In this document: piece by piece, positions 8,616 to 42,614 of the stretch
How positions within the stretch are numbered: position 1 is the stretch's first letter
Layout: each line of letters begins with the position of its first letter
Source of the DNA: Planctomycetota bacterium
Lineage (GTDB): Bacteria; Planctomycetota; Planctomycetia; Gemmatales; Gemmataceae
Reading direction: 5' to 3'
Length of the DNA stretch: 48,978 nucleotides
Assembly (NCBI GenBank): GCA_016873095.1
Contig: VGYC01000029.1
Coordinates: 1-48,978, forward strand
The notes under the pieces: generated by a model
What the model was told of the DNA's origin: nothing
The model's input: only the letters and a program-made list of their open reading frames with translations
Databases searched by the model: none
Made by a program: the position numbers and the translations under genes

Positions 8616-9376
8616 CACAGCCTCTTCAATTCCGGCCAGTCGCCGATGGCCACGGCCAAACTACCCTTGAGCTCGGGCAGCGGCCGCGGCGGGTTTTTCT
8701 GCTCGGACTCGATATGGCCGTCACGCATGTGCACCACGCGACGCGCCCAGGCGGCAATGTCGTTCTCGTGCGTCACCATGATGATCGTCTTGCCCTGCTG
8801 GTTCAAGCGCGTGAGCAAGACCATGATCTCGTCCGAAGTCTTCGAATCGAGGTTGCCCGTGGGTTCGTCGGCGAGAATCACGTGCGGGCTATTGACCAGG
8901 GCGCGGGCGATGGCGACACGCTGTTGCTGTCCGCCCGAGAGCTGCATCGGCCGATGGTCGAGACGCTCGCCCAGGCCTACCAGTTCCGCCATGCGAATGC
9001 AATGGGCACGCGTGCTCTCATCGAGTCGGCCACCCTGATAGACAAGCGGCACCTCGATATTCTCGACCACGGTGTACTGCGGCAGCAGATTGTACGACTG
9101 AAAGACGAAGCCCAGGTAGCGGCTGCGGATTTCCGAGAGATGATCGTCGTCCATCTCCGACACGTCCTGATCGCCCAGGAAGTATTGCCCGCTGGTCGGG
9201 CGGTCCAGGCAGCCAAGCAGGTTCAGCAACGTCGATTTTCCGGAGCCGGACGGCCCCATCAACGCCACGAAGTCTCCCTGGTTGACGGTCAAGGTCACGC
9301 CGCGCAACGCGCGCACCACCACCGCTTCCAGGTAGTAGTTCTTGACCAGGTCGATTACTTTCGCGACAGCGGCCAT
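8615..9376 (-). CDS. ABC transporter ATP-binding protein, MacB/LolD family
   Basis: A 253-residue ATPase. Walker A is GPSGSGKST, the Q-loop lies in [22 protein letters not shown], the signature is [15 protein letters not shown], Walker B is [13 protein letters not shown] and the H-loop is IIMVTHEND. The YNLLP and ENIEVPL sequences are typical of the LolD/MacB/FtsE group. It powers the adjacent FtsX-type permease at the inner membrane. The ATG at 9376 is chosen because it places a normal short strand before ALRGVTLTV; the open frame continues upstream into poor sequence. It starts 70 nt after the adaptor gene stop and is coupled to the permease by an overlapping TGATG. Confidence 0.95.
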
Positions 9377-31860: not shown

Positions 31861-31901
31861 GATCGACAATCCTCGGCCGTCACACGGCCGTGCTGAGGCG
31901 A

Positions 31902-31918
31902 CAACGCTGGCAGCGTTG
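31902..31918. repeat. Single REP-like palindrome
   Basis: CAACGCT, loop GGC, AGCGTTG, preceded by TGCTGAGGCG and followed by CCCACGC. The loop GGC and the GTGG-type head on the minus strand match the REP-like units at 18195 and 37926 with compensating stem changes. The hairpin at 38351 shares the loop and similar flanks. Confidence 0.5.
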
Positions 31919-31954
31919 CCCACGCGACTGCGTTCACAGATTTCCGCATCGATG

Positions 31955-37953: not shown

Positions 37954-38049
37954 GACGTCGCGACACTTCCCAAAGAGCGAGTGTCAGTGTATGCTGCCCG
38001 TAACCGCGTGAAAGCGCCCGCCGGCTCGAATTTCGGGAGGAAGGTCCAC

Positions 38050-39483
38050 ATGCGAATGAGCAAACTCAAGGCGGCGGCTGTGGCCGCAATCTTGATGAGC
38101 GCGGCAGGCGGCCGCCTTCTGGCCCAGCAAGCCGCCTCCAAGTTCGACTTGACGCCCACGAGCTTCGAAAAGCTACACGCCCTCATCCGCCCGCATGACA
38201 ATGAATGGCGGCACCTGCGCGTCCACTGGCTCACGGACGTGATCGCTGCTCGCAAGAAAGCCGCGGCCGAGGACAAGCCGATCATCATCCTCTACACCGG
38301 CGGCGCCGGCTACAACGAGCCGCTGGGCATTTGCTGAAGCGCTGCGTCCCACCACCTGGCAGGTGGTTCCGCCACGCTGACCGACGAGGCCATCAAGCTG
38401 CTCAACGATAAGGTCGCCTGCTTCGCCCCCGGCTGGTTCATCAACAGCGACGACAAGGTGTACCAGGATGCGTGGAAGCGCTTCTACATCGCCAAGCCGA
38501 AGCCCACGGAAGGCAACGGCTGGCTGCGCGGCACGCAACTCGTGATGATGACCTCCACCGGCCGGTTGCTTGCGGGATCCGTCAAGTACGGCGACCGCAA
38601 CGGACTCGGCCCCGCCCTCAGAGAAGTTCTGCAGGAATACGCGAAACTTCCCGAGGCGGAGCGCCGCGCCAGCTCCGTCGCCGGCAAGGAAAAGCCAGTG
38701 CCCGCGCCGCCGCCCGGCGGACTGGTTCTGACCATCTACGACCGCCCGCTGGGGCGCGTCGCAACCAAAAGCGCGCCGGAAGTGTCAGCGACCGGAGAAT
38801 ATCGCCTGCCCGCCGGCCGCGATTTCGACGGCTTCCGCACGCACGCCCCGCACGGACAGCGCGGCTCGCTCTGGCTGACCGAGCAGGAATGCCGGTCGCT
38901 CGTTCCGCAGGAACTCCGGGTGGGCGCCAGCAGCAAGGTTCCCGCCAAGCTGGTCAAGCGCCTTTGCCTGCTCGGCATGTGGCCGCAGACCCTCTGGGTC
39001 GTGGAGCAGGCCTGGCAACCGGATTCGCTGCGCGATGGCGCGTTGCAACTGACCGTCGAAAAGGTCGGCGAGCGGACGGTGCGCCTACGCGTCAACGGCA
39101 ACGTGCTCCTGTCCGGCAAGGGCCCGCTCAAGCTCTATCCGACCGGCAAGGTGTTGAAGACGGTCGAGAACCGTTACGATGCCCGCCTGGAAGGAGTTCT
39201 GGAGTACGACCGGGCCTCCAGGCGCATCACGCGCTGGGACATGGCGTCGCTGGGTGACTACACCGGCTGCTGGTTCGCCGGCAACGACGGCTGGAAGGAG
39301 GCCACGTCCGGCTCGCCGTTGCCGCTCGGCTTCGCCTTCGAGATCGATCACACGGCGTATCAGGTTCCGGCGGAGCGCCGTCGGCCGCGTTCCTTTGTCC
39401 ATGCCTACATCTTCCGGGAGCGGGAACCGTTCTACTGGGATCCGGAACTCTGGCATGAGGACTGGAAGAAGCGGCAACGCTGA
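38050..39483 (+). CDS. Secreted thioredoxin-like protein with in-frame UGA (candidate selenoprotein)
   Basis: Read through one UGA, the frame gives 477 residues. Residues 1-26 form a signal peptide (KAAAVAAILMSAAGGRLLAQ). A thioredoxin-like half follows, with VIAARKKAAAEDKPIIILYTGG and the active-site region YNEPLGIC-U, where U96 is the UGA codon at 38335-38337. After it the same frame continues without interruption: ATLTDEAIKLLNDKVACFAPGW, then a C-terminal domain of unknown type. The ATG at 38050 has AAGG five bases upstream. I recall related planctomycete proteins with PLGCTU at this place, which would put U96 on the known Sec position; this is memory, not a search. Alternatives are a pseudogene or two separate genes; the downstream part has no good start of its own (GTG at 38458, no Shine-Dalgarno). 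Confidence 0.7.
38335..38367 (+). promoter_or_regulatory. In-frame UGA with candidate bacterial SECIS hairpin
   Basis: UGA 38335-38337, then 13 nt, then ACCACCT (38351-38357), loop GGC (38358-38360) and AGGTGGT (38361-38367). A 3-bp lower stem (38344-38346 with 38370-38372) is possible. The apical loop begins 20 nt after the UGA and starts with GG, as expected for bacterial SECIS elements (loop roughly 16-37 nt from the UGA with a G at its start). The same GGC loop occurs in local REP-like palindromes, so this could instead be a repeat. Confidence 0.5.
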
Positions 39484-39707: not shown

Positions 39708-42614
39708 ATGTTGTGGTCACGGTCCGCGCGCGGGCGTCGCTGGACATGCAAGCGTCGCTCGAGCCAGGCGATCTTGGGCGTCGAATGGTTGGAAACGCGG
39801 GCGCTGCCCACGTCGAGCGGCTGGGCACTGGCGCTGACGGGGGGATTATCGGCGACCGACGCTGCGCGGATCGCGCTTGTTGCGGGTCTGGCGAGCTTCG
39901 ATCAGACGTTCACCGGCACTGGCCGCAGTGATGAGTTTCGCGCCGGCTCGGGCAGACAGCTGGTGATCGGCCTGGGTGGCAACGATCATATCCGGTCGCT
40001 GGCCGACGGCGGCGAGCCTGACCCCGCGCAGACGGGAGGCGCTGGCCGCATCAATGTGCGGATTCCGGCTGGCGCTGCCGACGACGTGTTCTTCGGCGGC
40101 GCGGGGGCGGATATCTTCGAATTCATGCCCCTGCTCAACGGTCGCACCGAGGTTGTCGATCAGTACCGTAGCCACAGCAGCGGCAAGGTCAACTGGCACG
40201 AAGTCGCCGGCGAAAATGACAATGTCCACGATCACTGGGTCGAGGGATTCGGCAACGACATTATCGTCGACTACAGCAAGGCCGAGGGTGACCAGATCAA
40301 GATCACGGGACACACGGTGGCGCTGGCCGGGATCGATTACGGTGTGGATGCCGGCGGCGCCTTTTCGCTGATCACCATTCGCAGCGACCAGGGGGCCGGG
40401 GGCGGCGCCCACAACGGCGATATCCTCGGCACCATCAAGGTTTACGGCGACCGAGTGACGGCGGAAGATGTCTGCCTCGACGCCGGCCCGCACAACGGCA
40501 TCGAACGGCTGGCAGAGGCGGATCGTTTGGCCGCAAACAACGGTGGCGGTGGCCGGGAAGTCGTCTCAGCCAGCAACGGCGACACGTTTGGCGGCGCCGG
40601 ACGGGTCGTGGACCTTGTAACGCTTGGACGCGGCAGCCAGACGATTGATACCGGCGCCGGCAATGATCGGATCGTAGTCCTGGGCGATGGCGGCGAACCC
40701 GCGCCCGCGCAGCAAGGCGGCAAGGGGCGCGTCAACGCCGCCGTCGATTCCAGCCTGTCCACTGACGTGGTCCGCGGCGGACTCGGCAAGGACCAGTTCG
40801 TCTTCCGGCTCATGTTGAATGCCAGGAAAGAAATCCTGGCAAGACACACGCGCGCCGACGGAACCATCAACTGGCGACGTGTTGCCGGTGAGAACAAGAA
40901 TGTCCACGATCACTGGGTCGAAGGCTTGGGCAACGATGTGATCCTGGACTTCAACAAGGGTGACGGCGACCAGATTCGCATTGAAGGCCACACGGTCTGC
41001 ATTGCCAGCATTTCCTACGGCGTCGATGCCGGTGGCGCCTTCTCGTTGATCAGCTTGAAAAGCAACCAGGGCGCGGCCGGCGCACACAACAAGGACTTTC
41101 TGGGCACGATCAAGGTTTACGGCGACAAGGTGACCAGGGCCGACGTGACCGTCACGGCCGAGGTGTATCACGGCATCGATCAACTCATGTTGGTTGACGC
41201 ACTTGACAACAGCGCCGGCCGGGCTGCCGGAATGCATGGAGCGCCCAGCAGCGCGTTCCAGGAATACGTGCCGGATCGCACCATCGTGCAGACCTTCCTC
41301 GGCTCCGAGCGCGGTGACAAGATTCGCGCCGGCTCCGGCAGGCAGTTCGTGGATGGCGCAGGCGGCAATGACCACTTTCTCTCGTTTGCGGACAACGGCG
41401 AACCCGACCCGGCGCAGACGGGAGGCAGCGGACGTGCCACCAGGGCCGTGCCCGCCGGCGCTGCCGACGACGTCTTCCGTGGCGGCGCGGGGGCAGACAC
41501 GTTCGAGTTTCTCCCTCTCCTGAACGCGCGACCCGAAGTTCTTGACCAGTATCGCAGTCACAACAGCGGCTGCATCGACTGGCATAGCGTCGCCGGCGAG
41601 AACGACAACGTTCACGATCACTGGGTCGAAGGCTTCGGCAACGACACGATCCTTGACTACAGCAGGGCGGAAGGCGACCGCATCAAGGTGACCGGTCACA
41701 CGGTGAGGCTGGCGAGCATCACCTATGGCAGCGATGCGCGCGGGACCTTCTCGCTGATCACCATCCGCAGCGATCAGGGGGCCGGAGGCGGGGCGCACAA
41801 CGGCGACATCCTGGGCACGATCAAGGTTTACGGGGACAAGGTGACGGTCAAGGACGTGGCCATCAATGCCGCGCCGCACAACGGCATGGAACTGTTGCGC
41901 GAGGCCGACCGACTCGCCGAGCACAACGGCGGCGGGACGCGCGTCGTCACACTCACGTCTGCCGGCGCCACATATGTCGGCGGCGCGCGCGTCACGGACC
42001 TGGTCACGCTCGGCCGCGGCAATCAGAGCGTCGATACCGGCGCCGGTAATGATCGCATCGTCATCATGGGCGACGGCGGCGAACCCGACCCTGCTCAGAC
42101 CGGCGGCAGCGGCCGCATCACTTCCCCCGTCGATCCATCCCTCTCCACCGACGTGGTCCGCGGCGGACTCGGCAAGGACCAGTTCGTCTTCAAACTCTTT
42201 CTCAACGCCCGGCCGGAAATCATCGCCAAGCACACACGCGCCGACGGCAGCGTGGACTGGCACGGCGTGGCCGGCGAGAACAACAATGTCCACGACCACT
42301 GGGTCGAGTCGCTTGGCAACGACGTGATCCTGGACTTCGACAAGGGTGACGGTGACCAGATCCGCATCGAGGGCCATACCGTTTCAATCGCCGCCATCGA
42401 ATATGGCAGCGACGACGGTGGCACGTTCTCACTCATCATCCTGCGCAGCGACCAGGGCGCCGGTGGCGGCGCCCACAACGGCGACCTTCTCGGCACGATC
42501 AAGGTCTACGGCGACCAGGTAACCGAAGGCGATATCTGCGTCGATGCGGGAGTGCATCATGGTATCGACCAGCTGAATGCCCTGGTTGCCGCCAGCGCGC
42601 ACGACGCGAAATGA
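39708..42614 (+). CDS. Surface protein with RTX-like repeats and planctomycete LEPR-like N-terminal motif
   Basis: A 968-residue protein. The N-terminus has a basic segment and VEWLETRALPTS, close to the LE-x-R motif found at the start of many large exported planctomycete proteins. The rest is four units of about 230 residues arranged A-B-A'-B'. Each has RTX/haemolysin-like calcium motifs (GGAGADIFEF, GGLGKDQFVF, GAGNDRIV), then VAGENDNVHDHWVEGFGND, GDQIKITGHTV and GTIKVYGDKVT. It is probably calcium-stabilised beta-roll structure on the cell surface or secreted. AAGGAG lies seven bases upstream of the ATG, and the predicted promoter lies at 39549. There is no enzyme motif. Function unknown. 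Confidence 0.88.
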   Translation: MLWSRSARGRRWTCKRRSSQAILGVEWLETRALPTSSGWALALTGGLSATDAARIALVAGLASFDQTFTGTGRSDEFRAGSGRQLVIGLGGNDHIRSLADGGEPDPAQTGGAGRINVRIPAGAADDVFFGGAGADIFEFMPLLNGRTEVVDQYRSHSSGKVNWHEVAGENDNVHDHWVEGFGNDIIVDYSKAEGDQIKITGHTVALAGIDYGVDAGGAFSLITIRSDQGAGGGAHNGDILGTIKVYGDRVTAEDVCLDAGPHNGIERLAEADRLAANNGGGGREVVSASNGDTFGGAGRVVDLVTLGRGSQTIDTGAGNDRIVVLGDGGEPAPAQQGGKGRVNAAVDSSLSTDVVRGGLGKDQFVFRLMLNARKEILARHTRADGTINWRRVAGENKNVHDHWVEGLGNDVILDFNKGDGDQIRIEGHTVCIASISYGVDAGGAFSLISLKSNQGAAGAHNKDFLGTIKVYGDKVTRADVTVTAEVYHGIDQLMLVDALDNSAGRAAGMHGAPSSAFQEYVPDRTIVQTFLGSERGDKIRAGSGRQFVDGAGGNDHFLSFADNGEPDPAQTGGSGRATRAVPAGAADDVFRGGAGADTFEFLPLLNARPEVLDQYRSHNSGCIDWHSVAGENDNVHDHWVEGFGNDTILDYSRAEGDRIKVTGHTVRLASITYGSDARGTFSLITIRSDQGAGGGAHNGDILGTIKVYGDKVTVKDVAINAAPHNGMELLREADRLAEHNGGGTRVVTLTSAGATYVGGARVTDLVTLGRGNQSVDTGAGNDRIVIMGDGGEPDPAQTGGSGRITSPVDPSLSTDVVRGGLGKDQFVFKLFLNARPEIIAKHTRADGSVDWHGVAGENNNVHDHWVESLGNDVILDFDKGDGDQIRIEGHTVSIAAIEYGSDDGGTFSLIILRSDQGAGGGAHNGDLLGTIKVYGDQVTEGDICVDAGVHHGIDQLNALVAASAHDAK
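39903..42600 (+). repeat. Intragenic duplication of a 1386-bp two-unit block
   Basis: Matching landmarks in the first and second halves of the gene are exactly 1386 nt apart: CAGAC at 39903 and 41289, the NVHDHW codons at 40221 and 41607 and again at 40899 and 42285. Near the end of unit B the offset becomes 1389, so one codon was gained or lost. Units A and B within a block are more distant from each other than A from A' or B from B'. Confidence 0.85.

What the first reader, a model, noticed from the sequence alone, without database searches (positions are those of the whole stretch)
38050..39483. Candidate selenoprotein: in-frame UGA inside a secreted thioredoxin-like protein
The sequence shows one continuous frame from 38050 to 39483, broken only by a UGA at 38335 (codon 96) directly after Cys95 in YNEPLGIC. 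Codon use and protein character continue on the other side without a new start or ribosome binding site (the next in-frame GTG at 38458 has no Shine-Dalgarno). A hairpin with a GG loop starts 20 nt behind the UGA, the spacing known for bacterial SECIS elements. From memory, planctomycete relatives carry PLGCTU in the same place. Caveat: the hairpin resembles REP-like palindromes in this window (GGC loop, similar flanks at 31891-31925), so an inserted repeat that supplied the UGA is a serious alternative.
Basis: partly seen in the sequence, partly recalled or inferred. Interest (0 to 1): 0.88.

Follow-up and report, generated by a model that had tools for sequence, protein, structure and literature searches.

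The report
New obligate selenoprotein family in planctomycetes
A stop-like UGA codon in this gene almost certainly encodes selenocysteine, and the gene belongs to an apparently undescribed family of exported thioredoxin-like proteins, common in Planctomycetota and Verrucomicrobiota, in which selenocysteine is kept and was never seen replaced by cysteine.

Summary
The in-frame UGA at 38335-38337 (codon 96) is real and best explained as a selenocysteine (Sec) codon. Evidence: (1) 36 of 39 distinct relatives from Planctomycetota genomes have exactly one in-frame TGA at the same alignment column, including four paralogues in this genome and a 75%-identical sibling gene. (2) A search stopping before the Sec column found 78 further loci in Planctomycetota and Verrucomicrobiota; 78/78 have TGA there. 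(3) The hairpin after the UGA fits the bacterial SECIS model and covaries strongly in the main subfamily. (4) selB is found in 90/98 genomes with the family versus 145/294 without (Fisher p=3e-15); the 3 family-positive genomes lacking both selB and selD have sense codons there. (5) This genome has selA, selB and selD; a complete tRNA-Sec was not found in the draft assembly, but all 15 relatives checked have one. (6) Purifying selection continues across the UGA. The hairpin is unique in the genome, so the inserted-repeat alternative fails. No Pfam or NCBIfam family claims the protein, nor does a 2026 list of 119 prokaryotic selenoprotein families. Sec was lost at least 3-4 times, never to Cys among about 160 genes. 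The likely role, an exported Sec-dependent oxidoreductase, is inferred.

The parts
38035..38044 (+). Shine-Dalgarno-like GGGAGGAAGG in front of ATG 38050
   Evidence: sequence
38050..39483 (+). selenoprotein gene, 477 residues with Sec at 96
38050..38127 (+). signal-peptide-like N-terminus (MRMSKLKAAAVAAILMSAAGGRLLAQ)
   Evidence: sequence, helix 2-27 in model; inferred, no predictor run
38212..38655 (+). thioredoxin-like domain, residues 55-202
   Evidence: VIA-align Z 11.4 to 3f9u (rmsd 3.8, 123 aligned), 9.4 to 1sen; canonical relative Z 12.4
38332..38334 (+). Cys95, candidate partner of Sec at position -1
   Evidence: Cys at -1 in 17 and at -2 in 15 of 36 Sec members, none in 4
38335..38337 (+). 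UGA codon for selenocysteine 96
   Evidence: same column is TGA in relatives
38351..38367 (+). SECIS-like apical hairpin: 7-bp stem, loop GGC at 38358-38360, 20 nt after the UGA; possible lower pairs 38338-38341/38375-38378 and 38344-38346/38370-38372
   Evidence: apical stem identical in the sibling with loop GUC; covariation in the main subfamily; unique in genome
38716..39354 (+). C-terminal beta-rich domain, residues 223-435, fold not assigned
   Evidence: AlphaFold2 model; only weak matches

Best explanation
The gene encodes an exported, two-domain selenoprotein. Its UGA-96 is decoded as selenocysteine by SelB and tRNA-Sec, directed by the hairpin at 38351-38367. Sec96 sits between the first strand and first helix of a thioredoxin-like fold, at the N-cap of the helix where thioredoxins carry their nucleophilic Cys. 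The most likely function is that of a selenol-based oxidoreductase outside the cytoplasm (thiol:disulfide exchange or peroxide reduction), with the Cys at -1 (here) or -2 (main subfamily) as resolving partner and the C-terminal beta domain recognising the substrate or anchoring the protein. Shown here by sequence evidence: conserved UGA, covarying RNA hairpin, presence and co-occurrence of Sec machinery, selection across the UGA. Predicted: the fold. Inferred only: export, catalytic role, partner Cys, role of the C-domain. The confidence given is for Sec incorporation and family membership; for the oxidoreductase role it is about 0.6, and for any specific substrate low.
For: 36 of 39 distinct relatives carry exactly one in-frame TGA at the Sec column, most at about 20-35% identity, plus the 75% sibling. 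An unbiased N-terminal query (ending before the column) gave 78/78 TGA; 75 of these genes run on for 311-344 open codons, two are cut by the contig end and one is shorter (103 codons). Hairpin covariation in 56 sequences: 94% of cells paired versus 79% shuffled, 5 of 6 pairs with changes on both sides, score 0.618 versus 0.332 shuffled (0/500) and 0.12-0.16 for slid versions; invariant G in the loop. It meets the bSECIS constraints of PMC13188914. selA 571 bits, selB 381 bits (adjacent, C81) and selD 287 bits in this genome. selB co-occurrence odds ratio 11.6, p=2.7e-15. Eight family-positive genomes lack selB: three (G151, G226, G347) also lack a selD above cut-off and their members have sense codons at the column; the other five keep selD and TGA, as expected of incomplete assemblies. 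dN is about 0.04-0.4 and well below dS on both sides of the UGA; dS is lower in the 60 codons after it than further on in the pairs compared. tRNA-Sec in 15/15 relatives. Sec96, and Sec102 in the canonical model, sit at the N-cap of the first helix after the first strand of the Trx domain.
Against: No complete tRNA-Sec was found in this draft assembly (548 contigs, 95.5% complete): only a 5' fragment (C6) and a 3' fragment (C242). The window protein and its one close sibling form a long-branch clade whose hairpin differs in sequence from the main subfamily, so covariation was not tested for that subtype. No protein evidence (mass spectrometry or 75Se). The loop around Sec is low-confidence in the window model (pLDDT under 50).
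Confidence: 0.95

Rival explanations
1. The family is selenoprotein elsewhere, but this genome has lost tRNA-Sec, so here the gene yields only a 95-residue fragment.
For: No complete tRNA-Sec in the assembly; tRNA-Sec fragments that look like integration scars.
Against: selA, selB, selD intact; four paralogues with open frames and conserved UGA; draft assembly of 548 contigs. PMC5330540 reports that, in its benchmark, selenoprotein-containing genomes lacking a tRNA-Sec prediction lacked it because of the assembly.
Confidence: 0.03
2. UGA is read through with an ordinary amino acid (suppressor tRNA or leaky termination).
For: A long open frame follows the UGA.
Against: Only TGA, never TAA or TAG, at the column; a covarying hairpin follows; co-occurrence with selB, and sense codons in the three genomes without selB and selD.
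Confidence: 0.01
3. A REP-like palindrome inserted and brought the UGA, i.e. a pseudogene.
For: GGC-loop hairpins are in mild excess in the window.
Against: Hairpin unique in the genome; the sibling gene has the same UGA and stem without an indel; purifying selection on both sides.
Confidence: 0.005
4. Two separate genes, the second starting at GTG 38458.
For: A 341-codon ORF starts there.
Against: No Shine-Dalgarno; residues between UGA and GTG are conserved in frame between the window and its sibling and partly across the family, and lie inside the Trx domain; dN/dS low there.
Confidence: 0.005

Closest known systems
VPGUxxT family thioredoxin-like (seleno)protein, type 2 (NF041383)
   Same: Thioredoxin-like domain carrying Sec; weak similarity over the N-terminal part only (best 23.5 bits, E 4e-5, in L064)
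   Different: Far below its cut-off of 275 bits; different Sec motif; the window protein itself does not match
TsoC, NEPxGxxU motif selenoprotein (NF045708)
   Same: The window's NEPLGICU fits the published motif letter for letter (PMC13188914)
   Different: No NCBIfam match for the window protein, and none to this model for 36 family members, at E up to 10; many members have HPLGCxU instead, so the motif match is probably chance
Thioredoxin_7 / DsbD C-terminal domain / DsbH / AGR2-ERp18 thioredoxin-like proteins
   Same: Fold of the N-terminal domain
   Different: CxxC replaced by CU or CxU with no Cys at +3 in nearly all members; extra C-terminal domain; Sec
Glycine reductase selenoprotein A (GrdA)
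   Same: Long held to be the one selenoprotein without Cys homologues (PMC1088965)
   Different: Unrelated protein; Cys homologues have since been reported (PMC12013277)

Membership tests
Selenoprotein with bacterial SECIS | In-frame UGA at a column conserved as UGA in homologues | tested here: met
Selenoprotein with bacterial SECIS | bSECIS model: loop 3-9 nt, stem 4-16 bp, G in the first two loop positions, loop 16-37 nt after UGA, MFE at most -7.5 (PMC13188914) | tested here: met
   window: 3-nt loop GGC, 7 bp, 20 nt, -18.5 kcal/mol; main subfamily: 5-nt loop, 18 nt, G second
Selenoprotein with bacterial SECIS | selA, selB, selD in the genome | tested here: met
Selenoprotein with bacterial SECIS | tRNA-Sec (selC) in the genome | tested here: inconclusive
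   only fragments in this draft; complete in 15/15 relatives
Selenoprotein with bacterial SECIS | Cys-containing homologues (usual, not defining) | tested here: not met
   0 Cys at the column among 149 TGA and 12 sense-codon members examined
Selenoprotein with bacterial SECIS | Selenium in the protein | not testable with these tools
   needs 75Se or mass spectrometry
VPGUxxT thioredoxin-like, type 2 (NF041383) | Score above the curated cut-off of 275 bits | tested here: not met
   no match for the window; best relative 23.5 bits
TsoC (NF045708) | Match to the NCBIfam model | tested here: inconclusive
   no match at E up to 10, but presence of this model in the library was not verified; the motif alone fits
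Trx7/PDZ seleno (NF041199) | Match to the NCBIfam model | tested here: not met
   no match for the window; 4 of 36 relatives, best E 0.097
Thioredoxin-like superfamily | Thioredoxin fold with the catalytic residue at the N-cap of the first helix after the first strand | tested here: met
   predicted models only: Z 11.4 and 12.4 to 3f9u; Sec directly before helix 97-104 / 103-114

The most novel reading that the evidence does not exclude
[quoted passage not shown] That would also explain why Cys/Sec-pair search methods missed it.
Probability: 0.6. Interest if true: 0.85.

Novelty: new member of a known kind. Interest (0 to 1): 0.74.

Why it matters
It adds a large family, apparently absent from the list of 119 prokaryotic selenoprotein families (PMC13188914) and from the Pfam and NCBIfam copies used here, in two phyla where selenoproteins have been little described. 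Genomes can hold four or more copies, and standard annotation would be expected to truncate such genes at the UGA. The lack of Cys versions makes the open question of what Sec does that Cys cannot directly testable. One carrier, Limnoglobus roseus strain PX52, has a complete genome.

Tried and rejected
Repeat insertion: rejected, hairpin unique. Second gene from GTG 38458: rejected. Rfam scan of the window: no family. tRNA-Sec by RF01852: the hits checked in this genome are ordinary tRNAs, though only 150 of 1102 candidates were scored; two patterns gave nothing or coding-like sequence. One apparent Cys case (L139) is an alignment edge in unrelated sequence. Relatives in viral contigs and plasmids: none. 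A full N-terminal alignment A2 was too divergent for a collection scan; the closer A3 worked. Conserved neighbour genes: none shared by more than 13 of 74 loci. C-terminal domain fold: only weak, scattered beta-barrel-like matches, not assigned; it was not modelled alone. Literature: no paper in the held library was found to describe the family; supplementary tables, including the selenoprotein list of PMC4807772, could not be read.

Full report
Observation. The frame, UGA, upstream Shine-Dalgarno-like site and hairpin are all present. One correction: the stem begins 14 nt after the UGA and the GGC loop begins 20 nt behind it. Base composition by codon position is continuous across the UGA. 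By itself such a hairpin occurs at 0.8% of random positions and its energy is ordinary, so comparison with relatives decides.

Relatives. A search of 59 related genomes with the read-through protein found members in 22, most listed with '1 TGA'. Extracting them gave 39 distinct genes; 36 have exactly one TGA, at the Sec column. This genome holds four copies (C29, the window; C138; C38; C16) and genome G025 a 75%-identical orthologue with the same UGA. A profile search of 392 Planctomycetota genomes found strong members in 98, again mostly with one TGA. To avoid bias, a query alignment ending just before the Sec column was scanned against named genomes: 78 loci in Planctomycetota and Verrucomicrobiota, including the complete genome of Limnoglobus roseus strain PX52, and every one has TGA at the site.

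RNA signal. In 56 sequences of the main subfamily (motif mostly HPLGCxU) the hairpin covaries: 5 of 6 pairs show changes on both sides, 94% of cells pair, and the covariation score is far above both shuffled and slid controls. Most planctomycete loops read CGUGN and many verrucomicrobial ones AGGUU, with an invariant G. The window and its sibling have a different stem, ACCACCU/AGGUGGU, with loops GGC and GUC. Both types meet the published bSECIS constraints (PMC13188914). Synonymous divergence is lower in the 60 codons after the UGA than further on in the pairs compared, consistent with RNA constraint.

Machinery. This genome has adjacent selB and selA on C81 and a selD. The RF01852 hits checked in it are ordinary tRNAs, but all 15 relatives tested have a tRNA-Sec with anticodon TCA. 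Searching with the sibling's gene found only a 5' piece, ending in the anticodon loop, on C6 and an 18-nt 3' piece on C242. I read this as a gap in the assembly, possibly around integration sites. selB occurs in 90 of 98 family-positive genomes and 145 of 294 others; related genomes are not independent, so the p-value is indicative only. Eight positives lack selB. Three of them (G151, G226, G347) also lack selD above cut-off, and their family members carry sense codons at the Sec column. The other five keep selD and the TGA, as expected of incomplete assemblies.

No cysteine counterpart. Over all loci examined the column is TGA in 149 cases and Ser, Asp, Arg or Asn/Pro in about a dozen, never Cys. 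A maximum-likelihood tree needs 4 changes between Sec and non-Sec, at least 3 of them forced by well-supported branches. The deep-Sep paper states that all known selenoproteins now seem to have Cys-containing homologues (PMC12013277). More distant thioredoxin-like proteins do have Cys, so the claim holds only within this family, and the sample of non-Sec members is small.

Protein. The N-terminus looks like a signal peptide (inference). AlphaFold2 gives a thioredoxin-like domain and a beta-rich C-terminal domain (window pTM 0.81; Limnoglobus protein mean pLDDT 89, pTM 0.85). The first domain resembles the DsbD C-terminal, ERp18/AGR and DsbH group, and Sec lies directly before the first helix after the first strand. 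A Cys lies at -1 in 17 members, at -2 in 15, and in neither position in 4, so a resolving Cys is common but not universal.

Novelty. Pfam gives only weak Thioredoxin_7 hits for some relatives; NCBIfam gives none for the window and distant VPGUxxT hits for some relatives. The 2026 inventory of 119 prokaryotic families (PMC13188914) lists none that clearly fits, with the caveats that the TsoC motif NEPxGxxU matches the window by letters, that its model was not verified to be in the library, and that the last rows of the table were seen only in excerpts. It is thus, as far as these sources show, a new family of a known kind, selenoproteins, with an unusual absence of Cys versions. It may still be described in sources not held here.

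Noticed in passing
G000:C6 about 70499-70540 (L092:1499-1540); G000:C242 about 9227-9245 (L095): Fragments of a tRNA-Sec gene: a 5' half ending in the anticodon loop and an 18-nt 3' end, each joined to unrelated sequence; they look like integration scars at selC.
   Followed up: partly
G025:C64:24506-25432, G288:C82 (L225) and other relatives: selD itself contains one in-frame TGA in several relatives, so selenophosphate synthetase is probably a selenoprotein there; in this genome (C117) it lies in a 1439-codon open frame with no internal stop, perhaps a fusion.
   Followed up: no
window, e.g. 31891-31925: Perfect 7-bp hairpins with a 3-base loop are in excess in the window (14 versus 3-6 shuffled; GGC/GCC loop 5 versus 0-1); the SECIS hairpin sequence itself is not repeated.
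   Followed up: partly
window 39708-42614 (+): 968-residue repeat protein with recurring GDGDQIRIEGHTV-like segments directly downstream; no Pfam match.
   Followed up: no
L021, L043, L046, L130-L137: Family members without Sec (Ser, Asp, Arg or Asn/Pro at the site) coexist with Sec paralogues in several genomes; they may be inactive or repurposed copies.
   Followed up: partly
L059, L060, L029, L033: Four Sec members lack the Cys at -1 and -2, so a Cys partner right next to Sec is not essential across the family.
   Followed up: no
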